From a virus, in IMG/VR virus record IMGVR_UViG_3300005577_000036, positions 1-61,794 of that record: 61,794 nucleotides of DNA; one strand, 5' to 3'. A program made the translations under genes and the position numbers. Within the stretch, counting starts at the first letter, position 1. The number at the start of each line of letters is the position of its first letter. Below are positions 21,141 to 48,169 of this stretch, in pieces. Below the pieces are notes generated by a model. It made no database searches, had not been told where the DNA came from, and saw nothing but the letters and a program-made list of their open reading frames with translations.

Positions 21141-21171
21141 CAAAGATAATATTTTAGTTTTAACTAATCAA
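21141..21171 (-). promoter_or_regulatory. Bacteroidetes-type promoter of the structured RNA
   Basis: On the minus strand TTG (21171-21169), a 20-nt spacer, then TATCTTTG (21148-21141), matching the -33 TTG / -7 TAnnTTTG consensus with correct spacing. Transcription should start near 21134, just before the first pseudoknot arm. It overlaps the last codons of the upstream gene. Confidence 0.7.
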
Positions 21172-21951
21172 GTCAAGTATTTTTCTGATTACTTCACCAT
21201 TGTATTCATTTTTGGTTATTGTCAGAAATTGTAGTGTTGTCATTGATGAATCCAAATCTATTCCATTTGACTTGACGAACATTTCACGGCCACTCTTACA
21301 ACTTCCAGTTAACAGATGATGCCATTCAAAAAACAGGTGATTGCTGTAAAATTCATTCTTTTTGAACTTTTTAATAAATTCATCTCTTTTTTCTTCAAAA
21401 GATAGTGACGAGTAAAATTTATCATTGACAGCCTCAATTGCATTTTCTTTGGTATCCCCGTGAGCAAAAAGGTTTCCTGACTTGGCAATGTACATTTTTT
21501 GTGTACTCATGTCATCCTTGATGACCAGCACCTTTGCAACGTTATTTACGATTGAAAGGAATACACAGGGGATATCATCAATGTAGTATACTGGCTGCTT
21601 ATTGAATGTTTTGAAAGAGTGTATTTGCTTGGTCAAAAATCCTTTTTTGTAATCAGAATATACGATTGGTTTAACATCGCCATCGCCATAGCCAGAGCCA
21701 GAGCCAGAGCCATCGCCATCGCCATAGCCATAGCCATAGCCAGAGCCAGAGCCAGAGCCATCGCCAGAGCCAGAGCCAGAGCCATCGCCATCGCCATCGC
21801 CATAGCCATAGCCATAGCCAGAGCCAGAGCCATCGCCATAGCCAGAGCCAGAGCCATCGCCATCGCCATCGCCATAGCCATAGCCATAGCCAGAGCCATC
21901 GCCATTAGTTACTGGCTCAATACTCATGAATGCTTTGATTAAATCTTCCAT
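21160..21951 (-). CDS. Gly-rich low-complexity repeat protein, 263 aa
   Basis: N-terminus MEDLIKAFMSIEPVTN, then ~75 residues of alternating Gly with Ser, Asp or Tyr (GSGYGYGDGDGDG type), then an alpha/beta domain of ~160 residues with ITKNEYNGEVIRKILDL at the end. Every second residue is Gly, so the repeat may be flexible or form Gly-rich sheets. It ends beside the DUF6948 gene, with 13-nt overlap. I recall similar Gly-repeat proteins near DUF6948 in other phages, but the function is unknown. Confidence 0.65.
   Translation of the reverse strand: MEDLIKAFMSIEPVTNGDGSGYGYGYGDGDGDGSGSGYGDGSGSGYGYGYGDGDGDGSGSGSGDGSGSGSGYGYGYGDGDGSGSGSGYGDGDVKPIVYSDYKKGFLTKQIHSFKTFNKQPVYYIDDIPCVFLSIVNNVAKVLVIKDDMSTQKMYIAKSGNLFAHGDTKENAIEAVNDKFYSSLSFEEKRDEFIKKFKKNEFYSNHLFFEWHHLLTGSCKSGREMFVKSNGIDLDSSMTTLQFLTITKNEYNGEVIRKILDLIS
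21675..21905. repeat. Hexanucleotide-type tandem repeat inside the Gly-rich gene
   Basis: About 230 bp built of the units GCCAGA, GCCATC and GCCATA in irregular order. All six frames stay open through it (Gly-X, Ala-Met/Leu and Ala-Ile/Arg readings), so the extra ORFs there are artefacts. Such arrays expand and contract by slippage in multiples of 6 bp without breaking the frame. Confidence 0.85.
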
Positions 21952-35893: not shown

Positions 35894-36166
35894 TTACGCT
35901 TCAATTAATGTTTTGATTTGCGCACCAGTTTGTGTAACGTACAAGGTACGTGATACCCATTGGTTGTTGCTGTGAAACTGAACATACACAAATCCATTGG
36001 CGATAATGCCCGCAGGGTTTTGAGTAGCAGTACCGGCGTAGTCACCATAGTCAACAATAGTTGAACACATGCGGTAACGGGCTAATGAAGGTGATTGTGC
36101 CGTGTACTGAACAGGAGTAGCAGCATCGCTACCTACTTGGGTTAAAAGAATGCTTTGTTGTGCCAT
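35894..36166 (-). CDS. Isolated minus-strand beta-rich protein, 90 aa
   Basis: The only minus-strand gene right of 26 kb, with its own promoter and terminator. The sequence (LLTQVGSDAATPVQYTAQSP, IIANGFVYVQFHSNNQWVSR, LYVTQTGAQIKTLIEA) is Gly/Ala/Thr-rich and lacks charge, like small capsid decoration or virion proteins. A virion role is inference only. Confidence 0.55.
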   Translation of the reverse strand: MAQQSILLTQVGSDAATPVQYTAQSPSLARYRMCSTIVDYGDYAGTATQNPAGIIANGFVYVQFHSNNQWVSRTLYVTQTGAQIKTLIEA

Positions 36167-36257: not shown

Positions 36258-36335
36258 ATGAACAACAATAGGACACTAAACACAAAATATTCCCACAGCC
36301 ACTTTCCGATTGTTGAAGTTCGTTTCGCAGATTAA
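36258..36335 (+). CDS. 25-codon leader ORF
   Basis: ATG 36258 to TAA 36333-36335, beginning MNNNRTLNTKYSHSHF. It runs through the 5' arm of the terminator hairpin at 36292-36357, as leader peptides do in attenuators. No run of one amino acid is evident. Translation would keep the 5' arm single-stranded. Confidence 0.4.
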   Translation: MNNNRTLNTKYSHSHFPIVEVRFAD

Positions 36336-36367
36336 TTTCTCATCTTGTGGTTGTGGGTCTTTTTTTA
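36292..36367 (+). terminator. Attenuator-type terminator in the glycosylation operon leader
   Basis: CCCACAGCCAC (36292-36302) pairs with GTGGTTGTGGG (36347-36357), 11 bp with one G-T, followed by TCTTTTTTTA directly before ATG 36370. It stands between promoter and first gene with no plus-strand gene upstream to terminate, so attenuation (or a ~115-nt RNA) is the best reading. Confidence 0.6.
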
Positions 36368-36369
36368 CT

Positions 36370-37104
36370 ATGCTGATAGTAATGGCAGTTCATGATACGG
36401 AAGAAAATAGTAGGTCAAAATACACCAAAGAGTGCCTTGGCTCACTATTGGATACAGTTGATTTTGGGAAACATAGAATTATAATTTCAGACAATGGGTC
36501 ATGCCAAGAAACTCATGAGATTTATCGTGGTTTTTTATCAAGGTCAAATTATAATGAAAACATCAAGTTTAACTTTAATATTGATAATTTAGGAACTGCC
36601 AAGGCTGTTAATTTAGGGTTAAGGACACGATTATATAATGAAGTTTGCACCAAGTGTGATAATGATATAGTTGTACATCAATCAGGATGGGTTGAGGAAT
36701 TGGAACAGGTGTTCATTGATAATCCTGAAATAGGAATATGTGGACTTAAACGTGATGATGTATATGGCGACTTTACTAAAAATGGCAAATTGCTAATGTC
36801 TGATGATGTAATGGGAACCTGTACGGCCTTAAACCCACGCTTATTAGACGCTATAGGATACTACAATCAATTTTCGGTGTATGGGTATGACGATGTCATA
36901 TTCTCTGCAAGATCGCTTGCTGCGGGCTTTAAAAACTGCTTCTTGCCACACATCAAAATAACTCATTTAGATGAAGGTGGCACAGAGTACACAGAATGGA
37001 AGAAACAGGAAGCACAGCAGTACTTACAGGAAGTTGGATTGTTGTGTGACGCTTATAGGCAGGGAAAAGCACCAATCTATTATGATGGAGGATTTGGCAA
37101 ATGA
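36370..37104 (+). CDS. Family 2-type glycosyltransferase
   Basis: 244 aa from ATG 36370; the longer frame from 36310 would start inside the leader hairpin. RIIISDNGSCQETHEIYRGF, NLGTAKAVNLGLR and CDNDIVVHQSGWVEEL are GT-A features (DNGS, N.G.a.a.N.g, D.D). The later GYDDVIFSARSLAAG also fits GT2. It transfers a sugar from a nucleotide-sugar donor. ATGA overlap with the next GT; substrate unknown, likely virion or phage-modified host glycans. Confidence 0.85.
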   Translation: MLIVMAVHDTEENSRSKYTKECLGSLLDTVDFGKHRIIISDNGSCQETHEIYRGFLSRSNYNENIKFNFNIDNLGTAKAVNLGLRTRLYNEVCTKCDNDIVVHQSGWVEELEQVFIDNPEIGICGLKRDDVYGDFTKNGKLLMSDDVMGTCTALNPRLLDAIGYYNQFSVYGYDDVIFSARSLAAGFKNCFLPHIKITHLDEGGTEYTEWKKQEAQQYLQEVGLLCDAYRQGKAPIYYDGGFGK

Positions 37105-37736
37105 AAGTAAAACTACTCACAGTATTCACCGACCCTAACGTATATGGGTTGCATCAACTTAAAAAGTCATTGGACAAGTTTGGTTGGTACTATGACTTTA
37201 TCCAGGCACCCCAATGGAAAGGGTTTGGCACCAAACTAATATCAGTATATGATTACCTGCAAACATCTGATATAGATGCTTTTTTCTTTGCTGATGCTTA
37301 TGATGTGGTAGCATTGGGTTCAATGGGTGAAGCATTGTCAAAGCTGGACATAAATAAAATCACATTCAGCTCAGAGAAGAACTGCTGGCCGGATAGTAAC
37401 CTTGAAAAGTACTACGAACCAATTACCCAAGGTGGTTTTAACTATTTGAACAGCGGATTATACTTTGCACCAAAGGAACTGTTCATGAATCTGTTTTACA
37501 TTGATGCTCCAATGTATAGCTCAGATGACCAACTTTGGGCGACCCATATGTACTTATTCAACGAAAAAAGCAACATTGTACTGGATACTAAACAAAGCGT
37601 ATTTAATAGCCATAGCTTTATCGCAGAAGGTGAATATGGATATGAGAATGGAAGAGTACAGATAAATGGTGAGCAGCCTGTACTGTTGCATTTAAATGGT
37701 CGCACTCAAGACCCTAAATTGGAGGAACTACTATGA
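37101..37736 (+). CDS. PLOD/procollagen-type glycosyltransferase
   Basis: 211 aa. DAFFFADAYDVVALG carries the D.YDv motif, and KITFSSEKNCWPD and GGFNYLNSGLYFAPKELFMN match the PLOD1-3-like glycosyltransferase family (FsaE..CWPd..L...Y...g..fLNSG..iG). The eukaryotic relatives glycosylate hydroxylysine of collagen; phage relatives may modify fibre proteins. ATGA overlaps both sides. Confidence 0.8.
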   Translation: MKVKLLTVFTDPNVYGLHQLKKSLDKFGWYYDFIQAPQWKGFGTKLISVYDYLQTSDIDAFFFADAYDVVALGSMGEALSKLDINKITFSSEKNCWPDSNLEKYYEPITQGGFNYLNSGLYFAPKELFMNLFYIDAPMYSSDDQLWATHMYLFNEKSNIVLDTKQSVFNSHSFIAEGEYGYENGRVQINGEQPVLLHLNGRTQDPKLEELL

Positions 37737-38437
37737 CATTAAAAGAACTTACAGAGGGATGGGTTGATACTCCTGAATGGCATGAAAAGGTTAACAACGA
37801 GTTGATTGAACGTGTAAACTCTTGTCAGTATTTGAAAGAACACAGAGATTTTGTTGAGCAAAATGCTTTTGGGTTTGGTGAACGTTCTTTTCATTGGTTT
37901 TGGCACGAATTGATTAAGGAAATGCCTGAATACTTTACATTTTTAGAAATAGGAATTTTTCGTGGTGCTTCGTTGTCATTAATCGAATTGATATCGAACG
38001 AACAAAATAAAACATGCTCAAGAAGCGGTGTAAGCCCTTTAGATAGTACAGATGGTCATTGGGAATCAGATTACGAAAAGGATATACGAACCATTCATTC
38101 AAGGTTTAACATTAATCAATGTTATTGCATTTTTAAAGGATTGAGCACAGATAATAGATTTATGAGATGTGCTTATGATGGGTCACCATACGACATAGTT
38201 TACATTGACGGAGGGCATACCTATGAGGTTATTACAAGCGATTTAAGACACTATCCTAATATGGTTAATGTTGGTGGCTATCTTGTTGTGGATGATGCCT
38301 GCAACGATCTACACATGCCTTGGGGCTTCTTCCAAGGAATAGATGCTGTAACCCAAGCAGTGAAAGAATGGGAGAATCCAAATTTCGAGTTTCAATTTAA
38401 CGTTGTTCATTTAAGAGTATACAAAAGAGTAGCATGA
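37733..38437 (+). CDS. Class I SAM methyltransferase (Methyltransf_24-like)
   Basis: 234 aa. FLEIGIFRGASLSLIELIS (motif I, ~residues 64-82), YDIVYIDGGHTYEVITSDLR (D.iyiDG.H.ye....Dl) and GGYLVVDDA are typical of glycan-tailoring methyltransferases. It lies between two glycosyltransferase genes and probably O-methylates the sugar they attach. Confidence 0.8.
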   Translation: MTLKELTEGWVDTPEWHEKVNNELIERVNSCQYLKEHRDFVEQNAFGFGERSFHWFWHELIKEMPEYFTFLEIGIFRGASLSLIELISNEQNKTCSRSGVSPLDSTDGHWESDYEKDIRTIHSRFNINQCYCIFKGLSTDNRFMRCAYDGSPYDIVYIDGGHTYEVITSDLRHYPNMVNVGGYLVVDDACNDLHMPWGFFQGIDAVTQAVKEWENPNFEFQFNVVHLRVYKRVA

Positions 38438-39405
38438 AGAAAGTATTACACATAACACAATATCCTGATGATGGGACTGCATTTTACAGGAGTACACCAT
38501 TGAAGTACATTGATGGTAAAGACATATCAGTAACATTCCAACCATTGATGGGGCAGATAGCATGGAACACGTTTGTTGGCTATACTCACCTGTTATTAAC
38601 ACGCCCATCAAGTCACAATGATTTAGCCATGATAAGGTTGGCAAAAGATTGCGGTTTAAAGGTCATTTCAGACTACGACGACGACGTTTTGCACGTTGAC
38701 CAGTATAATCCTACATTTCACATTTACGAGAGCGCCAAGGGGCTTATTTTGGACTGCTTGTTATTTAGTGATGAGATATGGGTAACAACTGCAGGACTTA
38801 AGAAATCATTTGGCATGTACAATCAAAACATACATGTAATACCGAATGCTCATAATGACTACCTATTCAAAGCAAAATACAAAAAGCCGTTCAATGCTAA
38901 TACTAAAAAAGCATTTTGGAGAGGCGGTGGAAGCCATCAGGCAGATGTGTACGAGGTTGCGGACTATTTGGTAAAAACAATCAATGATAATCAAGATTGG
39001 GAATTCCAGTTCATTGGCGAAAGGTTTGTGTATTTGGAGCAAAGATGTGGCGCTAACTATCAACCAGTATCACAAATGTCATTGATGCAGTATTTCAAAT
39101 ACCTATACTCACAAAATCCAAATGTGATGTTTGCGCCACTCAGCAACACGAAGTTCAACCAAAGCAAAAGCAACATATCATGGATTGAGGCCACATATGC
39201 AGGTTCTGCTTTTTTCGGGAACTGTGAATTGAATGAGTTTAATCAAGAGGGGACATTGCCATTATCTCTATTATCAGAATATCCATCTAAAGAGGGAAGA
39301 TTGGATATAATGAAAAATGCAAATGAAATATCATGGGCAAATATTCATGATAATTTATTGCTATCAAGAATTAACGAACTAAGAAAAGAAAGGATACTAT
39401 CATGA
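38434..39405 (+). CDS. GT-B (family 4-like) glycosyltransferase
   Basis: 323 aa. An N-terminal HITQYPDDGTAFYRSTP, then VISDYDDDVLHVDQYN, WVTTAGLKKSFG and VIPNAHND, a C-terminal GGGSHQADVYEVADYL (fold-back region) and SWIEATYAGSAFFGN give the order of phage GT4-like enzymes. Nucleotide-sugar donor and acceptor not known. Confidence 0.75.
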   Translation: MKKVLHITQYPDDGTAFYRSTPLKYIDGKDISVTFQPLMGQIAWNTFVGYTHLLLTRPSSHNDLAMIRLAKDCGLKVISDYDDDVLHVDQYNPTFHIYESAKGLILDCLLFSDEIWVTTAGLKKSFGMYNQNIHVIPNAHNDYLFKAKYKKPFNANTKKAFWRGGGSHQADVYEVADYLVKTINDNQDWEFQFIGERFVYLEQRCGANYQPVSQMSLMQYFKYLYSQNPNVMFAPLSNTKFNQSKSNISWIEATYAGSAFFGNCELNEFNQEGTLPLSLLSEYPSKEGRLDIMKNANEISWANIHDNLLLSRINELRKERILS

Positions 39406-39989
39406 AGTTATTGAATGGCAAAATAGGCGTTAAGTTTGATGAAAGTCATAATAAGACACTAACCAAAGGACTAAATGACCTTGATATAGTAAGGGCTGAT
39501 CTGTGGATAAACCGGGAAGATGACGGTGAACAAAGCTCAAAATATAATGAGAACCTTAATTACCTTGAAACAAAGCCCCAAATAGCCTCTGTAACGATTA
39601 CATCTGCATCGTGTGACTATAAGGTTGGAGACAAGATATTTCTTCATTACATGGCCTATGAGACAGCAGAATTGACAGAATATGGGTGGATTGTAGACAC
39701 AGACTTTATTTTATTTCAAATAATGCCTGATAATACATTCAAAATGGTTGATGGCGCTTATTTAGGAGAACAATTGCTAACAGACGAGGTAATCACTGAA
39801 ACCGGCATTTATTTAAGCGGAGGAAAGAAAGAGGGTCTTAAAGTGAAAATAACCCATGTGCCAGATAATAACTTAATTAGTATCGGCGAGACAGTTGTTA
39901 CAGTTGACGACAAACAGTACGAACTTAACTATTGGGGTAAGAAATACATTAAACTGGTTGAAAACGAAATTGTAGGAGTGTTAATATAA
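39402..39989 (+). CDS. GroES-fold-like protein (possible co-chaperonin)
   Basis: 195 aa. CDYKVGDKIFLHYMAYETAE and the end VDDKQYELNYWGKKYIKLVE followed by NEIVGVLI resemble GroES (GD.V.f..y.gte...dgeeY.ilre.diLavi). Phage co-chaperonins such as T4 gp31 work with host GroEL to fold the major capsid protein. The gene is just ahead of packaging and head genes, which suits this. Identification is by pattern, not certain. Confidence 0.5.
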   Translation: MKLLNGKIGVKFDESHNKTLTKGLNDLDIVRADLWINREDDGEQSSKYNENLNYLETKPQIASVTITSASCDYKVGDKIFLHYMAYETAELTEYGWIVDTDFILFQIMPDNTFKMVDGAYLGEQLLTDEVITETGIYLSGGKKEGLKVKITHVPDNNLISIGETVVTVDDKQYELNYWGKKYIKLVENEIVGVLI

Positions 39990-40822
39990 TGCCAAGGAAA
40001 GCTGGATTCTGGATCAAGAAAGACGGTAAGATTGCTGTCGACACAAGTATGGACAAAAAGCTTAAGGAAAAGGAAGAAAGACTTAAGTTCAATGCCATGG
40101 CTACACCAAAAACCAGGCAAACCTATAGTATCCGTGGCAAGGGTCAAAAGTTCTTACGTGAAGTCCATATTCCTACCCTAAACAAGAAAATCAGAAACCT
40201 ATGGGTATACCTGCACCTTTGGAAGAAACATGTGTTGACGGTGGAAGCAAAAGCCAATGAGCAGGTAAAAGAAGTAAAACGGAGGGAAAGGGCTCATAGG
40301 CGAGTAGTTTTTGCCAGAAAAGAACGTACAGTAAGGAAAAAGGCTATTAGATGTGCTTCTGCTATGGAGCGTGGTAAGGTATCAAAGTATGCCTTAAACA
40401 ACAGGGTAAAGTACTATGGGCACTTTTACATGATTATAGTTGATAGATTCTTAGAACAGAAAAACATTAAAAAAGAGTTTTTCAATTTGCTCATGGTTTC
40501 CACCTATCAAAAGATAGTTGAACCACATATTTACTACATGTGGTCAGTGGTTGGGAGCGAGGACACATCAAAGGTGCGAACCAAATATTTATGTAATAAA
40601 GGATGGCTTCAAAGGTTATCAGGTAAAAGAGGTAAATTTGTTTTAACACTAAAAGCATTGAACTTTATACAGGAGTTTGATGATTTCTACGACCAGGAAG
40701 CAAAGAAACAATCAGATATAGTAAAGAATGCAAAGCGAAACAAAAACAGCGATACAAAAACTCTTAAAGTCAGTAGAAGGCGTAATAGAATTGCAGACGA
40801 AAAACCTACTGGACTATGCTGA
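39989..40822 (+). CDS. Basic protein with C-terminal winged-helix-like region, 277 aa
   Basis: Strongly Lys/Arg-rich throughout. The central AKANEQVKEVKRRERAHRRV is a basic coiled coil, and FFNLLMVSTYQKIVEPHIYY to GWLQRLSGKRGKFVLTLKAL resembles a wHTH. It overlaps the next gene by 95 nt in another frame, an unusually long overlap. It may bind DNA during packaging. Confidence 0.5.
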   Translation: MPRKAGFWIKKDGKIAVDTSMDKKLKEKEERLKFNAMATPKTRQTYSIRGKGQKFLREVHIPTLNKKIRNLWVYLHLWKKHVLTVEAKANEQVKEVKRRERAHRRVVFARKERTVRKKAIRCASAMERGKVSKYALNNRVKYYGHFYMIIVDRFLEQKNIKKEFFNLLMVSTYQKIVEPHIYYMWSVVGSEDTSKVRTKYLCNKGWLQRLSGKRGKFVLTLKALNFIQEFDDFYDQEAKKQSDIVKNAKRNKNSDTKTLKVSRRRNRIADEKPTGLC

Positions 40823-41066
40823 GGGAAAAGTACCTGAAGTGCAGGTTGATCCAAAAGCATGGGAAATAACATTAAAAATAGCCAAAGACTTACCTAACTT
40901 GCAGATGCTGGATAAGGTTCTGAATGGTGAGATTATTTTGCCTGAGCCAAAGGAAGAAGAACAGGCACCAACAGAGGCAATAGTAAAACCTATTTCTGAT
41001 GCTAATCCATTTGAATCAAGAAGTGCAGCAATAAAAGAAAAGCTGAATGGCACCACCCATAAGTAG
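40728..41066 (+). CDS. Small-terminase candidate, 112 aa
   Basis: Directly before the large terminase with a 20-nt overlap and after a basic protein. Helical (IQKLLKSVEGVIELQTKNLL and WEITLKIAKDLPNLQMLDKV). Position and size fit TerS, but no HTH is clear; the upstream basic protein is a rival candidate. Confidence 0.45.
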   Translation: MQSETKTAIQKLLKSVEGVIELQTKNLLDYAEGKVPEVQVDPKAWEITLKIAKDLPNLQMLDKVLNGEIILPEPKEEEQAPTEAIVKPISDANPFESRSAAIKEKLNGTTHK

Positions 41067-43143
41067 ACAGAGAAGTTTTGAGATAGAAGTACAGGGGCTA
41101 CTTTACAAAACTGGAATATGCCCACCTCTTGAAGAAATAAGAGGCTATGAGTTACCTGTTAAAGACCAAGTATGGTTCAGGGATTTAACATATGAAAAGT
41201 GGGATTGGAATGATGATCCTAAAAAAGGGCCACTATGGTTTAATGTAGCCAGTCAGGAACAACTTGACTGGTTTGATGCTGAAATAGAGCGACTACACGT
41301 AGGAGCATGGCACATGATAAGAGGTGTGCCGACATACTTCAATAAATATGCTCACTTCTTTCACCAATGGTTCTGTCTTGACATTGGTATTTACCCGATA
41401 TTTAAGGAAACATCATTAGAATACTTCAGGTTCTTTGAACTGTGCGAACAAGATCCATTCTGTTTAGGTGACATTGGTATTAAGGGTAGACGTTTGGGCT
41501 TATCATCAATGTCTGCTTCTATTAAGCTGTTGATTGCTATTCTCGAAAGCAATACCATTCAGGGTATAGTATCAAAGACGGGTACAGATGCTCAGGAAAT
41601 GTACTTCTTTATTAAGAACGCTCTTGAAAAGCTACCACCGTTCTTGATGCCAGACCTGAACAAGGTTACGGAGGGCGAAATACACATCGCCAAGCCATCC
41701 AAAAAAATCAGCACAAACAACACCAAGGCCAGCGGAGATAAGGGCAAGAACAACCGTATTAACTGGCTTGATACGTCAGAGAATGCTTATGATGGTCGTA
41801 GGGTAAGGCATGTTACCATTGACGAGGCTGGAAAGTGGAAGAAATATAATGTACAGAAGTGTTTAACCCGTATCAGTGATACACTTGTAGTAGGTGCTGT
41901 AATAGGTGGACACGTATCTGTGTTTACTACTGTAAATAAAGGTGAAGAAGGTGGCGATAACTTTAAGAACATTTGGGATGGTTCTGATCATATTAATGGC
42001 AAGAAAGACAAATTCGGTCGGACACAAACCAAACTCAAACGGTTCTTTATACCAGCCTATAGAGGCTTTTTAGGCTATGTAGGTAAGTATGGCGAATCTA
42101 TAGTCGAAAACCCAACAAAAGAGCAGACAGAGTTCTTAAAGAAGTTTGTAGACCCTGCTACAGGATTAGGGTGTCCTGATCCATACATCGGCGCTAAACA
42201 ATATCTGGAAGAGAACAGAAAGATGTTGGAGGATGACCCGGAAATGCTATTGGAGGAAATACTTAAAAATCCATTCACATGGAAAGAGGTATTCAAAGGT
42301 GCTAATAACCGCTGCAATTTCAGACTTGACGACTTAAACAACCAAATAGCAAAAGTTGAAGAAGAACTAAGGGCTATGGGCTTGAAAGAAATGGGTCGCC
42401 GAGGGGTATTTAAAAAACATGATAGCGGTGAAAAATACTTTGAAGACCACAAAGAGGGGATGTGGTATATTATGGAGTTCATTGATGAGAACAACAGGTC
42501 AACATACCAAGGAAGCATTAAATGCCCCAATAACGCTATTTATGGCGCTGCGGGCTTAGATACATACGCCAACGCTAAGGCCACTGTTGACCCAGGTTCA
42601 GATGCTTGCTGTATCATCCATAAGAGATATGATGCGCTAAACCCTGACAATTCCAATATGCCTATTGCCATGTTCATTGGCAGGCCACCTAAAAAAGAAG
42701 AGTTCCACGATCAAATATTTTGGGGGTTAGAATACTTTGGGGTTAAGTTACTGGCCGAACGTTCACCTACAGACTGGGAAGACTATGCCACTAAAAGAAT
42801 GCTGGCATCTGACATTGAACAGGAAAAGAAGCATGGGTATTTAATCACCACCAAAAGAGCCAATGGTTCAGAGGTATATGGCATAGCACCACAGGATAAA
42901 GAGGCAAGAGAGCAGCATTTGACAGAAATGAAGGAATATGCCTACAATAACATGCACAAAATTAAGTTCTTGAGGTTGCTGAAGGAAATGGTTAAGTTCG
43001 ATATTGATGAAAGGACTGATTATGATGCTTGTATGGCATGGGGCTATTCATTGATGGGATTGAAGGGCTATCAACCAATAGCCAAAGTAGAACCTAAAGT
43101 TAGGCAATTCATGAAGATCAAGCGAAGTAAGCAATATCATTAA
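41047..43143 (+). CDS. terL: Terminase large subunit
   Basis: 698 aa. Deviant Walker A GIKGRRLGLSSMSA (~residues 144-157), Walker B RHVTIDEAGKW (~253-263), then the C-terminal nuclease with GLDTYANAKA...DPGSD (~500-518) and a final DYDACMAWGYSLMG. GRRLG.S in place of GxxGxGKS is common in Bacteroidetes phage terminases. It is the ATPase/nuclease that pumps DNA into the head. Confidence 0.9.
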   Translation: MAPPISRQRSFEIEVQGLLYKTGICPPLEEIRGYELPVKDQVWFRDLTYEKWDWNDDPKKGPLWFNVASQEQLDWFDAEIERLHVGAWHMIRGVPTYFNKYAHFFHQWFCLDIGIYPIFKETSLEYFRFFELCEQDPFCLGDIGIKGRRLGLSSMSASIKLLIAILESNTIQGIVSKTGTDAQEMYFFIKNALEKLPPFLMPDLNKVTEGEIHIAKPSKKISTNNTKASGDKGKNNRINWLDTSENAYDGRRVRHVTIDEAGKWKKYNVQKCLTRISDTLVVGAVIGGHVSVFTTVNKGEEGGDNFKNIWDGSDHINGKKDKFGRTQTKLKRFFIPAYRGFLGYVGKYGESIVENPTKEQTEFLKKFVDPATGLGCPDPYIGAKQYLEENRKMLEDDPEMLLEEILKNPFTWKEVFKGANNRCNFRLDDLNNQIAKVEEELRAMGLKEMGRRGVFKKHDSGEKYFEDHKEGMWYIMEFIDENNRSTYQGSIKCPNNAIYGAAGLDTYANAKATVDPGSDACCIIHKRYDALNPDNSNMPIAMFIGRPPKKEEFHDQIFWGLEYFGVKLLAERSPTDWEDYATKRMLASDIEQEKKHGYLITTKRANGSEVYGIAPQDKEAREQHLTEMKEYAYNNMHKIKFLRLLKEMVKFDIDERTDYDACMAWGYSLMGLKGYQPIAKVEPKVRQFMKIKRSKQYH

Positions 43144-43187: not shown

Positions 43188-45653
43188 ATGGCTCTGAACG
43201 GTATTACCAATCTCCCCAATATTTTAAGCACTGATACAGACAAAGACAAAGAAAGCTTTGGATTAAAGCTTATGCAGGGGGCTTTTGATAATTGGAATAC
43301 CGGATACAACGGCGAAACAAGATATGGCCGTAAGACCCGATTTGACTACAACAGGGCATTTGCTATGGGCAGACAGCCAATGCAAGAATATAAAGATATC
43401 CTTGATTTAGACGGCGAGAATAGCGTTATTCAGCTTATCTATGAACCACTACCAATAGCAATTCCTTTCTTAAACAGGCTAAAAGACCGTTACAATCAGC
43501 GGGAAGAAAAAATTAGTTGTACCTCAATTGATCCATTCAGTGCTGAAAAGAAGAAAAATGCCAAAGATAACGCCCTATTCAAACTCAACGAAAAAGATAA
43601 AATCCAGGCGCTTCAACAGGAATCAGGAGCAGAAATAGAACAATATTCTGATGATGACCCACAAAGCGAATCAGAGATTGAAATCATGTTCGGCTACAAG
43701 TACCGTATTCCTGAAGAAATCATCATGCAGGAGTTGATTAACATAGTGTTCTATGATAATGACTTCACAGGCGTGATTAAAGACCGCCTGATGGATGATT
43801 TGATTAACTGTGGATATGCAGGCACTAAGGTGTACATCGATGCCACAGGAAGGATTAAAATACGTCCTATACGCCCTGAGAACTTAATAACAAGCTTTAC
43901 AGAATGGAATGACTTTAGAGATTGGCAATACATAGGCGAAGTGTATTACATGAGTATTGCTGAGATAAGACTAAAGTACCCCAATAAGATTGATGAGCAA
44001 AGGCTATGGGAACTGGCACAGACATTTACCGGCAAATACGGAAATCCTAATGACTTCAATTACGGATGGAATAGTTTGTACTATACAGCCCTTGCAAGAC
44101 CTTATGACAGTTTCAGGGTAGAAGTTATCGAATTGGAATTAAAAACGCTCTACAGCCTTAAATATAAGACAGGTACAGATAGATTTGGCAAGGAAACATT
44201 GGATAAGGTAAAAACCATTACTGACCCTAAAAACAGCATAGAAAGCAACCCGTATTACGTTTCATATACCGGTGTAATGATAGCCGATACAGAATATGTG
44301 TTGGAGTGGGGTCTATCAAAGAACATGGTTAAGCCTAAAGACAATTTACAAGAAATAATCAGTTCTTACGCCATATATATGTATAACAACAATCAAATGG
44401 TGAATAAGCCAATGATTGAAACCATGATTCCATCTATCAAGAAAATGCAGTTGATAGACCTTAAACAACAAAACATCATTGCTGCAGCTATGCCCGATGG
44501 TTACGATGTGGATATATCAACCATGAGTGATGTGGACATTGGTTTAGGGGAGGGTGCTTTAAGCCCTTTTGAACTGTACAAAATCAAAAAGCAAACGGGT
44601 ATTGGGTTCTACAAACGTATTGATGATGGAGGCTTAGACCAAAGGAGAGAGCCAATAACGGCTAACAACGTTCCATTCTCAGGAAAGCTTGAACAATTGC
44701 GTAATGAATGGAATGCGGAGTTTGATACATTGATGCGTATAACTGGCTCTAACAACCTTGAATCAGGCGAGATAACCAATCAGGCCGTTAGTCAACAGGT
44801 GGTTAAACAAGCTAAACAAACTGGCGAAAGCTCATCTAACTACCTATACAACTCATTCCTGAACATTATGCAAAGAAGTGCTAAGTTGGCACAATTAAGA
44901 GGATGGGATATATTGGTGTTTGGTAAGAAATTCGGGAAGACATTTTATGATGGGTATAGGAAAGCGTTGGGTGCTGAAAAGATTGAATATATCAAGGTTG
45001 AGGCAACAGATGACTTTGAACGTACGAACTTTGATGTACAGATCAAAACAATAATTGACGATCAGGCACAGCAATTCTTAGAAGCAAATATAGGTCAGGC
45101 ATTGGGTCAGAAAGAGATTACATTGGCAGATGCAATAGATGTAAGGAAACTGGCTACAATAGATGTAGACTATGCCTCCTACATGTTGGCATCACGGATA
45201 GCTAAACGTCAAAGAGAAGCGCAGCAGATGGCGGCACAGAACTCACAGGACAACACTCAAGCAGCCATTGCTGCAGCAAAAGCCAAGTCGCAGGGCGATA
45301 TTGATTTGGAAAATCTGAAAGCCAATAACAAGCTAAAAGAAATAGAACTTCAATCAGAAAAAGACAAGGAGAAAGAGATATTGAAGTCTGTGAACCTGAT
45401 TAAAGCTGAGATAGCTAAGTCAATGTTGGCACAGCCAGGAGCATCATGGCAGCAATTACCAGCGCCTATTCTTGATGGTATGGGCATAGTTGACCAGAGT
45501 GAAAAACAAATTATGGTTAACTCCATTCATCAAAAGCAAGAAGAAATGGCTGCACAGCAACAAGCAGAGCAGATAGCACAACAGCAACAAGAGGCAGCAG
45601 CCCAACAACAAGCTATGCAACAAATGCAGCCGCAAGAACAGCAAGCAGCATAA
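43188..45653 (+). CDS. Portal protein
   Basis: 821 aa, following terL and preceding scaffold and capsid genes. Large portal-type protein with long central helical region (IITSFTEW..., RNEWNAEFDTLMRITGSNNL) and a long Gln/Glu/Ala-rich tail (last ~130 residues; AEQIAQQQQEAAAQQQA). The Q-rich end is probably disordered. It forms the dodecameric DNA channel. Identification rests on size, place and the wing/stem-like sequence. Confidence 0.8.
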   Translation: MALNGITNLPNILSTDTDKDKESFGLKLMQGAFDNWNTGYNGETRYGRKTRFDYNRAFAMGRQPMQEYKDILDLDGENSVIQLIYEPLPIAIPFLNRLKDRYNQREEKISCTSIDPFSAEKKKNAKDNALFKLNEKDKIQALQQESGAEIEQYSDDDPQSESEIEIMFGYKYRIPEEIIMQELINIVFYDNDFTGVIKDRLMDDLINCGYAGTKVYIDATGRIKIRPIRPENLITSFTEWNDFRDWQYIGEVYYMSIAEIRLKYPNKIDEQRLWELAQTFTGKYGNPNDFNYGWNSLYYTALARPYDSFRVEVIELELKTLYSLKYKTGTDRFGKETLDKVKTITDPKNSIESNPYYVSYTGVMIADTEYVLEWGLSKNMVKPKDNLQEIISSYAIYMYNNNQMVNKPMIETMIPSIKKMQLIDLKQQNIIAAAMPDGYDVDISTMSDVDIGLGEGALSPFELYKIKKQTGIGFYKRIDDGGLDQRREPITANNVPFSGKLEQLRNEWNAEFDTLMRITGSNNLESGEITNQAVSQQVVKQAKQTGESSSNYLYNSFLNIMQRSAKLAQLRGWDILVFGKKFGKTFYDGYRKALGAEKIEYIKVEATDDFERTNFDVQIKTIIDDQAQQFLEANIGQALGQKEITLADAIDVRKLATIDVDYASYMLASRIAKRQREAQQMAAQNSQDNTQAAIAAAKAKSQGDIDLENLKANNKLKEIELQSEKDKEKEILKSVNLIKAEIAKSMLAQPGASWQQLPAPILDGMGIVDQSEKQIMVNSIHQKQEEMAAQQQAEQIAQQQQEAAAQQQAMQQMQPQEQQAA

Positions 45654-46813: not shown

Positions 46814-48169
46814 ATGGCAATAACTACACCATTAGCAACACCAGCTAATTACTCCGACCCAAGTATCACCAGATTTGGTCTGATTAGCGGACTTAACATT
46901 GTAACAGTAGCACCTTACAACAAATTCATTGAAACAAGGAACTTTGTGCCTTATGTATTGGTGAATGAATTGGCCGGTAACATTGAGAAAACTGACCACA
47001 AACAGTTCTTATGGTATCAGAACAGGGGTGCATTCATGGGCTTTGTTACATCTGCAGCAGCAGTAACCGTAGCAAACTCTGCATCAGCAACCATTACTGT
47101 GGGTTCAGGAGGTTATACCCAGTCAGGCACCAAATCATTACCTGCTGTAGGTATGATCTTTTATAACTCCCGTACAGGCGTTAACAGCCGTGTAACAGCG
47201 ACAAATACCTCAACCCCTAACGCACACACCTTTTCAATTACCCCGGTTGTAACAGGCCAGAATGCCTCTACATTGGCAGGGGATGAATTGTTAGGTCGTG
47301 GGTTCGTTTATCTTGGTGAGCAGTCGGATAAAACAGCCACTATCATCAGGAACATTGACAAATACAGCAACTATTGCACCGAGATCCGTAAGGACACCAC
47401 TATCGGTGATTTGGCTGCTGCTGAAAAGGTCGATTTCCAAATCAATGGTCAGTATTCATTCACCTATAAACAGAAACAGGATGATGACTTGGCGCTGTTG
47501 TTAGAGCGTGAGTACCTAATCATGGAAGGAACACAAACAAGCAACCTGCCATACACCGAAGAAGGTTCTAATGGTGTTATCAAACAGGTTCAGGCCAACG
47601 GTATTAATGGTACGTACAACACATGGGGTGTAACAACAACATTCGCTCAGTTGGAACGTGCTTTGTCATCAATTGGTGCGCCAAAAGAATACGATATTTT
47701 GGCCGATAACCAATCTTACATTGAAATGCAAAACTCAATCTTCACCGAAATCAACAACGGTGCTATTGTTTATGCTGATAACGCCGGCAAACGTGGAGGT
47801 ATGGATATTTCAAGGGACTTCGATTCATTGAAAATCTACAAACGCAAATACAACTTCACCAACTACCAGTTGTTCGATGAGCAGGCAATGTACAGTTCAA
47901 GTGGCTTAGGTCAGCGTTACCGTTTTATGTTAGGTATTCCTGTAGGTAATACATCAGGTACTACTGAGCGTGGAACTACTGTAACTGTGCCACGTTTGAC
48001 TATCATGTACCAAACACCATTCGGTGGCAACAAATGGCACATGGCTGATACCGGCTTATTCGCTGACACTCCAACCTCAACCAAAGCTGAAAAGGTAATG
48101 ACTACCATAGGCTATTGGGGTAGCAGGTTGGCAGGTGCTCAACAGTACTTCATAATGCAAGGCCAGTAA
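46814..48169 (+). CDS. Major capsid protein
   Basis: 451 aa, after scaffold, followed by a terminator. TRFGLISGLNIVTVAPYNKF, FLWYQNRGAFMGFV and KYNFTNYQLFDEQAMYSSSG; moderately acidic, beta-rich, HK97-like by position. Codons are more regular and GC-richer than in the early arm, as in highly expressed genes. Confidence 0.85.
   Translation: MAITTPLATPANYSDPSITRFGLISGLNIVTVAPYNKFIETRNFVPYVLVNELAGNIEKTDHKQFLWYQNRGAFMGFVTSAAAVTVANSASATITVGSGGYTQSGTKSLPAVGMIFYNSRTGVNSRVTATNTSTPNAHTFSITPVVTGQNASTLAGDELLGRGFVYLGEQSDKTATIIRNIDKYSNYCTEIRKDTTIGDLAAAEKVDFQINGQYSFTYKQKQDDDLALLLEREYLIMEGTQTSNLPYTEEGSNGVIKQVQANGINGTYNTWGVTTTFAQLERALSSIGAPKEYDILADNQSYIEMQNSIFTEINNGAIVYADNAGKRGGMDISRDFDSLKIYKRKYNFTNYQLFDEQAMYSSSGLGQRYRFMLGIPVGNTSGTTERGTTVTVPRLTIMYQTPFGGNKWHMADTGLFADTPTSTKAEKVMTTIGYWGSRLAGAQQYFIMQGQ

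What the first reader, a model, noticed from the sequence alone, without database searches (positions are those of the whole stretch)
36370..39989. Three glycosyltransferases, a methyltransferase and a GroES-like gene inserted among head genes
GT2-like, PLOD/procollagen-type and GT4-like enzymes plus a sugar-type methyltransferase are joined by ATGA overlaps and lie directly before terminase. Such a set can build a methylated oligosaccharide. The PLOD-type enzyme hints at modification of a protein side chain, possibly a virion protein, with the GroES-like protein assisting capsid folding.
Basis: partly seen in the sequence, partly recalled or inferred. Interest (0 to 1): 0.65.

Follow-up and report, generated by a model that had tools for sequence, protein, structure and literature searches.

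The report
Phage sugar-decorating gene cassette beside terminase
A set of sugar-transferring and methyl-transferring enzymes, one of them related to the enzyme that adds glucose to collagen, is carried as a swappable cassette by about a hundred uncultured phages of several unrelated lineages, nearly always at the start of the genes that build the virus particle, so it most likely puts a methylated sugar on the particle.

Summary
Genes at 36370-39989 encode a GT2-type glycosyltransferase, a PLOD (collagen glucosyltransferase)-type enzyme, a methyltransferase, a GT4-like enzyme and a tandem GroES-fold protein, joined by ATGA overlaps. Two further genes separate them from the terminase.

Tools add four things. 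(1) All catalytic residues known from human LH3 have counterparts; most are invariant in 87 of 87 phage homologues. (2) The block GT2-PLOD-methyltransferase (GT4 before or after) recurs in 96 contigs with several unrelated terminase families; in 64 of 69 with enough flank the large terminase follows within 8 kb. (3) PLOD and methyltransferase are fused into one protein in six contigs, in two separate branches. (4) Relatives exist with an empty site: small gene, GroES-like gene, terminase, no cassette.

So the GroES-like gene is core head machinery and the glycosyl cassette an accessory, laterally exchanged insert. Most likely it glycosylates a virion protein late in infection. No lysyl-hydroxylase-type gene, and in 25 of 26 records no thymidylate-synthase-type gene, was found, which argues against a literal collagen pathway and against DNA glucosylation. 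The acceptor is not shown. New variant of a known kind (phage virion glycosylation).

The parts
36370..37104 (+). GT2-type glycosyltransferase (244 aa), first gene of the cassette
   Evidence: Pfam PF00535 E 2.3e-10; D97-N98-D99 invariant in alignment of four phages; profile matches PDB 6yv7 'Glycosyl transferase, family 2' E 1e-5
37101..37736 (+). PLOD/LH3-type glycosyltransferase domain protein (211 aa), no hydroxylase domain
   Evidence: Pfam PF25342 E 2.3e-21; profile vs LH3 GT domain E 1.9e-28 and mimivirus R699 5.8e-27 over the whole domain; catalytic residues conserved in 87 homologues
37733..38437 (+). Class I methyltransferase, Methyltransf_24 / RMNT_CmcI type (234 aa)
   Evidence: Pfam PF13578 3.4e-9, PF04989 5.4e-5; fused to the PLOD-type enzyme in six contigs
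38434..39405 (+). GT4/GT-B-like glycosyltransferase (323 aa)
   Evidence: phrog_7162 glycosyltransferase 2.4e-20; homologue L112 hits Glyco_trans_1_4 1.7e-7
39402..39989 (+). Tandem GroES-fold (Cpn20-like) protein (195 aa); core head-module gene, not part of the mobile cassette
   Evidence: AlphaFold model pLDDT 83, pTM 0.75; Foldseek best PDB hit 7ekq_R 1.3e-5, then GroES/Cpn10 structures; BFVD best hit Chaperonin cpn10 of Cellulophaga phage phi18:3 7e-9; longer homologues hit Pfam Cpn10
39989..40822 (+). 277-aa protein of unknown function between the GroES-like gene and terminase; positional counterpart in L185 has an HU-like N-terminal DNA-binding domain
   Evidence: no significant family hit in Pfam, PHROGs, NCBIfam or PADLOC; L185 counterpart PF00216 7.5e-5
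40728..41066 (+). 112-aa protein directly upstream of and overlapping TerL
   Evidence: ORF list; no Pfam family; counterpart in relatives
41047..43143 (+). Large terminase (698 aa)
   Evidence: phrog_6681 4.4e-69
43188..45653 (+). Portal protein (821 aa)
   Evidence: phrog_6547 4.4e-63
46814..48169 (+). Presumed major capsid protein (451 aa), a candidate acceptor
   Evidence: inferred from gene order against Elemovirus and Maribacter phage Panino, where this position is 'virion structural protein'; not tested by its own profile
35894..36166 (-). Small 90-aa protein gene, divergent, marks the upstream edge of the insertion site
   Evidence: family A8 in podophage relatives with and without the cassette

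Best explanation
The four genes 36370-39405 are a mobile phage glycosylation cassette that works with the late (packaging and head) genes. Proposed mechanism: soluble cytoplasmic enzymes build a short methylated glycan step by step on a newly made virion protein before or during assembly. The GT2 enzyme probably places or extends an early sugar. The PLOD-type enzyme adds a hexose, by analogy a Mn-dependent alpha-1,2 glucose from UDP-glucose, to that sugar. The Methyltransf_24 enzyme caps the PLOD product by O-methylation. The GT4-like enzyme adds a further residue. The neighbouring tandem GroES-fold protein is a separate, core head-module gene, likely a co-chaperonin-type helper of capsid folding. 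SHOWN by sequence or structure prediction: enzyme families, catalytic residues, conserved order, fusion, position at terminase, empty site, module swapping, lateral exchange, GroES fold. INFERRED: expression with the late genes, activity, sugars, order of reactions, acceptor protein and benefit (shielding or altering the particle surface).
For: Enzyme identities. LH3-critical residues map to window D65/D68, E92, W96, N117, D142/D143, Q144, H197, N199. K45, D65, D68, E92, N117, G119, D143, Q144, H197 and N199 are invariant in 87 of 87 homologues (D142 in 77; position 96 is W in 43 and Y in 42) (roles in PMC10342707). Purifying selection: median dN/dS 0.06-0.10. Six PLOD-methyltransferase fusions with both domains full length, in two separate starred branches. 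TerL within 8 kb downstream on the same strand in 64 of 69 contigs, across podophage, T6, T35 and T61 terminase clusters; two more (L105, L085) show terminase-like ORFs by eye; L101/L109 carry it between portal and the protease/MCP-type genes. Empty site in L165, L167, L181, L186, L189, L197, L199, L217 and others. In L185/L214 the PLOD module is replaced by sugar-nucleotide genes: HAD+NTP_transferase, transaldolase. No transmembrane segment in the enzymes. No thymidylate-synthase-type gene in 25 of 26 records. Precedent: glycans on capsid and tail tube of mycobacteriophages (stated in PMC12619734 and PMC11256854).
Against: No acceptor is identified, and no structural protein family shared by all cassette-bearing phage groups was seen. 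The terminase-proximal position could simply be a tolerated insertion point between early and late genes. No cultured phage in the 50,697-record collection carries the cassette, so no mass-spectrometry data exist. Within the podophages, cassette gene distances do not track portal distances (rho 0.02-0.14 for PLOD and methyltransferase), so the enzyme set is not tuned to one particular capsid.
Confidence: 0.62

Rival explanations
1. The cassette modifies the host's cell-surface glycan (lipooligosaccharide core or capsule precursor) from the cytoplasmic side, to block re-adsorption or superinfection or to keep progeny from sticking to debris.
For: GT2/GT4 enzymes with no transmembrane segment are typical of LPS-core assembly (established knowledge); module swapping with sugar-nucleotide genes and a pyruvyl transferase next to the set in L105 resemble surface-polysaccharide loci.
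Against: No membrane anchor, and no lipid-carrier initiating enzyme, flippase or ligase was noticed in the maps or the window's Pfam scan (not searched for family by family); position with late packaging genes; no relatives found in 84,980 prokaryote genomes, although that scan depends on short patterns.
Confidence: 0.17
2. The cassette hypermodifies phage DNA: glycosyltransferases act on a hydroxylated base just before packaging, to evade restriction.
For: Phage GTs acting on DNA are known (Pyle 2024, cited in PMC12619734); the genes sit next to terminase; L085 carries 7-deazaguanine-pathway-like genes beside the set (by eye).
Against: No thymidylate-synthase-type (hydroxymethylpyrimidine) gene in 25 of 26 records nor in the window Pfam scan. 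No Tet/JBP hit, but the control genomes did not ring either, so this is inconclusive. The window carries ordinary DNA methyltransferases instead. A PLOD-type GT acting on DNA is not known to me.
Confidence: 0.1
3. A true collagen-like pathway: a hydroxylated lysine in a collagen-like tail or head fibre is glycosylated, as in animals and mimivirus.
For: Full-length homology to LH3 and R699; three of 26 cassette-bearing records encode collagen repeats over the family cut-off; cyanophage S-8S56 has a distant PLOD-like gene next to 2OG-Fe(II) oxygenases and a tail-fibre-like feature.
Against: No 2OG oxygenase of PF13640 in 26 records; the window and most relatives have no collagen repeat.
Confidence: 0.06
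4. Selfish or neutral moron genes that happen to be tolerated before terminase, with no virion role.
For: Accessory presence and lateral exchange.
Against: Strong purifying selection, kept gene order in unrelated phages, repeated fusion.
Confidence: 0.05

Closest known systems
LH3/PLOD3 glycosyltransferase domain and mimivirus R699 (collagen galactosylhydroxylysyl glucosyltransferases; Pfam GT_PLOD)
   Same: Whole GT domain, metal DxxD, E141, W145 (W or Y), N165, D190/D191, Q192, H253 and N255 equivalents
   Different: Stand-alone about 210 aa, no accessory or hydroxylase domain; partner is a methyltransferase (sometimes fused); no hydroxylase gene and rarely collagen in the phage
Virion glycosylation in mycobacteriophages (capsid and tail-tube glycans; Freeman et al. 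2023, read here only as cited in PMC12619734 and PMC11256854)
   Same: Phage-encoded glycosyltransferases proposed to modify structural proteins
   Different: Different phages; no PLOD-type enzyme known there to me; here a compact four-enzyme cassette at terminase, whereas in Maravista the genes lie near the 3' end of the genome
Streptomyces phage Zuko gp4-gp5 (UDP-glucose dehydrogenase + glycosyltransferase just before terminase)
   Same: GT4-type homologue (25% identity) at the start of the packaging block
   Different: No PLOD-type gene or methyltransferase in the stretch shown; function untested
Co-chaperonins: GroES/Cpn10, tandem chloroplast Cpn20-type, Cellulophaga phage phi18:3 cpn10; 'co-chaperonin GroES' before TerL in Elemovirus and Maribacter phage Panino
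   Same: GroES fold in tandem, directly upstream of TerL in cultured relatives
   Different: Window protein below Pfam threshold by sequence; some relatives carry an extra N-terminal Cpn10 domain (L020, L024)

Membership tests
GT_PLOD / LH3-type glycosyltransferase domain | Sequence membership over the whole domain | tested here: met
   PF25342 2.3e-21, cut-off exceeded; profile vs LH3 1.9e-28, R699 5.8e-27
GT_PLOD / LH3-type glycosyltransferase domain | Metal and donor/acceptor residues D112, D115, E141, W145, N165, D190, D191, Q192, H253, N255 | tested here: met
   All have counterparts; most are invariant in 87 of 87; W145 position is W, Y or F
GT_PLOD / LH3-type glycosyltransferase domain | Glucosyl transfer to Gal/Glc-hydroxylysine | not testable with these tools
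   needs enzyme assay
Procollagen lysyl hydroxylase (PLOD) proper | C-terminal Fe/2OG lysyl hydroxylase domain or gene | tested here: not met
   211-aa protein is the GT domain only; PF13640 in 0 of 26 records while controls rang
GroES/Cpn10 co-chaperonin | GroES beta-barrel fold | tested here: met
   Model matches 7ekq and many GroES chains
GroES/Cpn10 co-chaperonin | Cpn10 sequence signature | tested here: inconclusive
   window protein no Cpn10 hit; homologues L020/L024 7e-13 and 2e-17
GroES/Cpn10 co-chaperonin | Mobile loop that binds GroEL | tested here: inconclusive
   Low-confidence loop 140-142 after TETGIYLS resembles the GroES GGIVL loop; G135 invariant in 19
Phage virion glycosylation system | Glycan on a structural protein | not testable with these tools
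   needs mass spectrometry of virions
Phage DNA glucosylation system | Gene for a hydroxylated pyrimidine (thymidylate-synthase-type) | tested here: not met
   PF00303 absent in window and in 25 of 26 records; nine controls rang

The most novel reading that the evidence does not exclude
A widespread, laterally exchanged phage 'serotype-like' cassette, based on a collagen-type (PLOD) glucosyltransferase coupled or fused to a methyltransferase, writes methylated glycans on the particles of unrelated, probably Bacteroidota-infecting phages, with interchangeable sugar modules. The glycan would be a fast-evolving outer coat of phage particles, built by a minimal prokaryotic-virus relative of the collagen glycosylation pathway.
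Probability: 0.4. Interest if true: 0.8.

Novelty: new variant of a known kind. Interest (0 to 1): 0.62.

Why it matters
Phage particles are usually thought of as bare protein, and only a few glycosylated phages have been documented. A compact cassette found next to the packaging genes of unrelated phages, with clean cassette-free relatives and swapped sugar modules, would make virion glycosylation a general and testable phage trait and give it genetic markers. It would also place the collagen-type glucosyltransferase domain, known to me mainly from animals and giant viruses, in bacterial viruses in minimal form and fused to a methyltransferase, which bears on the origin and acceptor range of that enzyme family.

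Tried and rejected
DNA match to cultured phages: none. Single-sequence AlphaFold of the 195-aa protein gave a useless model (pLDDT 34) and was replaced by one with 19 homologues. Search of prokaryote genomes with PLOD and methyltransferase profiles: no relatives, though the scan depends on short patterns. DNA hypermodification: rejected as first choice. Literal collagen pathway: rejected. Defence-system role: no PADLOC hit. GroES-like gene as part of the glycosyl set: rejected because it persists at empty sites. Bacteroidota TAnnTTTG promoter boxes: 30 on the + strand, about what composition predicts (own estimate about 33), so not used. Searching structural proteins for an acceptor that tracks the cassette: the long form of the 213-aa tail/adaptor-like protein also occurs in a cassette-free relative (L192), so no candidate emerged. 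Open-access literature for PLOD-type phage enzymes or cassettes before terminase: nothing relevant. The two key papers on mycobacteriophage virion glycans and on DNA glycans are not held.
Full report
Observation. The window is a whole 61,794-base virus record with no DNA relative among deposited phages. Its terminase is related at about 25-27% identity to Elemovirus, Cellulophaga, Tenacibaculum and Maribacter phages, and its structural genes hit crAss-like muzzle and ring families. So it is a crAss-like podophage, probably of a Bacteroidota host (inferred). Two more genes (277 and 112 aa) stand between them and the large terminase at 41047.

PLOD-type enzyme. The 211-aa protein matches the whole glycosyltransferase domain of human LH3 and mimivirus R699 (profile E 1.9e-28 and 5.8e-27). 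Reading the alignments with a chain offset of +23 (inferred here; it places D112/D115, W145, N165, D187-D191, Q192 and H253 consistently) gives window D65/D68, E92, W96, N117, D142/D143, Q144, H197 and N199 as counterparts of LH3 D112/D115, E141, W145, N165, D190/D191, Q192, H253 and N255. Alanine mutants of E141, W145, N165, D190, D191 and Q192 of LH3 lose detectable transfer, and N255A keeps little (PMC10342707); the metal roles of D112, D115 and H253 are from my own knowledge. In 87 phage homologues K45, D65, D68, E92, N117, G119, D143, Q144, H197 and N199 never vary, D142 is kept in 77, and position 96 is W or Y in 85. An active enzyme is therefore expected. The characterised relatives add glucose to a sugar; R699 makes Glc-alpha-1,2-Glc in vitro (PMC11838735). 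The likeliest acceptor is thus a sugar already in place rather than a bare lysine.

A conserved cassette. Searches with the PLOD and methyltransferase alignments and own gene maps give 96 non-identical contigs, about 45 PLOD types at 80% identity. The order is GT2-PLOD-methyltransferase, with GT4 just before it or just after it, and in some an extra Methyltransf_24 gene after GT2. Terminase clusters: 23 podophage, 45 'T6', 15 'T35', 3 'T61'. T6, T35 and part of T61 share downstream tail genes (c3, c5, c7, c8) and may be one siphophage group; L101/L109 and the 131-kb L105 are further lineages. Of 69 contigs with at least 4 kb of downstream sequence, 64 have TerL within 8 kb downstream on the same strand. 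L105 and L085 show terminase-like ORFs 4-7 kb downstream by eye. L101/L109 carry the set between portal and the protease and capsid-type genes. Only L043 has it scattered. PHROGs confirm small and large terminases and portal in these neighbours.

Functional linkage. In six contigs the PLOD-type and methyltransferase domains are one protein, both full length. These lie in two separate starred branches of the PLOD tree, so fusion arose, or was exchanged, more than once. All cassette genes are under purifying selection (median dN/dS 0.06-0.10) and none has a transmembrane segment.

Accessory and modular. A portal-profile search found close relatives without the cassette, in which the small minus-strand gene is followed directly (in L167 after one extra gene) by the GroES-like gene, the terminase and the portal: L165, L167, L181, L186, L189, L197, L199, L217. 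L217's portal is 71% identical to that of the window's own virus. In the cultured relatives Elemovirus and Maribacter phage Panino the gene before TerL is annotated co-chaperonin GroES and no glycosyltransferase is annotated there. In L185 and L214 the PLOD-methyltransferase part is replaced by HAD+NTP_transferase, transaldolase and other methyltransferase fusions: a sugar-module swap inside the same flanks. Within the podophages the cassette proteins are more alike (median identity 41-49%) than terminase (25%) or portal (38%), and PLOD and methyltransferase distances do not follow the portal, which points to lateral exchange.

GroES-like protein. With 19 homologues the model is good (pLDDT 83). 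Its best PDB match is a chain of the Chlamydomonas ClpP complex, whose co-chaperonins include tandem Cpn10 domains (own knowledge), followed by many GroES chains. Its best viral match is a cpn10 of Cellulophaga phage phi18:3. Longer homologues carry an extra N-terminal domain that hits Pfam Cpn10.

Function. Best reading: late, cytoplasmic, stepwise building of a methylated short glycan on a virion protein (confidence 0.62). The main rival is host-surface glycan modification (0.17). DNA glucosylation is less likely because the needed hydroxypyrimidine gene is absent in 25 of 26 records and in the window; many of these records are fragments, and the Tet/JBP test is inconclusive because no control rang. 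A literal collagen-lysine pathway is unlikely: no 2OG oxygenase of PF13640 and collagen repeats over the family cut-off in only 3 of 26. The acceptor, the sugars and the benefit are not shown.

Novelty. Phage virion glycosylation is known from mycobacteriophages (as cited in PMC12619734 and PMC11256854). No held paper found here describes a PLOD-type phage enzyme or this cassette, and no deposited phage carries it: best hits are a 33% methyltransferase in a 735-kb uncultured phage record and weak GT hits. The held library lacks most subscription papers, so prior description elsewhere cannot be excluded. Rated a new variant of a known kind.

Noticed in passing
35894-36166 (-): A small (about 75-160 aa) fast-evolving protein gene on the minus strand sits just upstream of the cassette or, where the cassette is missing, of the GroES-like gene in many of these podophages; not detected in Elemovirus, Panino or the siphophages tested. 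Function unknown.
   Followed up: partly
36292-36369: A strong hairpin followed by a T run ends just before the GT2 start codon (-23.5 kcal/mol, z -2.7); L002 has a hairpin there too, L012 does not. Possible terminator or attenuator between early and late genes.
   Followed up: partly
L222 (Synechococcus phage S-8S56) 1787-4829: A 621-aa hypothetical protein with a distant PLOD-type GT stretch lies beside two genes annotated 2OG-Fe(II) oxygenase and a tail-fibre-like feature: a candidate collagen-style hydroxylation/glycosylation of a phage fibre.
   Followed up: no
L185 856-4587; L214 2-4470: Cassette variants with HAD-nucleotidyltransferase fusion, transaldolase and an 807-aa multi-domain protein ending in a methyltransferase.
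   Followed up: partly
L085 2428-5630: Genes that read like the 7-deazaguanine (queuosine precursor) pathway (QueC, QueD, QueE-like) lie between cassette and terminase; by eye only.
   Followed up: no
records of L021, L043 and L105: Collagen-repeat proteins in three cassette-bearing phages.
   Followed up: no
21160-21951 (-): 263-aa ORF with long YGYGDGDGSGSG-type repeats in its N-terminal half.
   Followed up: no
L220 (Streptomyces phage Zuko) 1319-3384: Cultured phage with UDP-glucose dehydrogenase and a GT4-type homologue a short way upstream of terminase: a possible laboratory system for the same idea.
   Followed up: no
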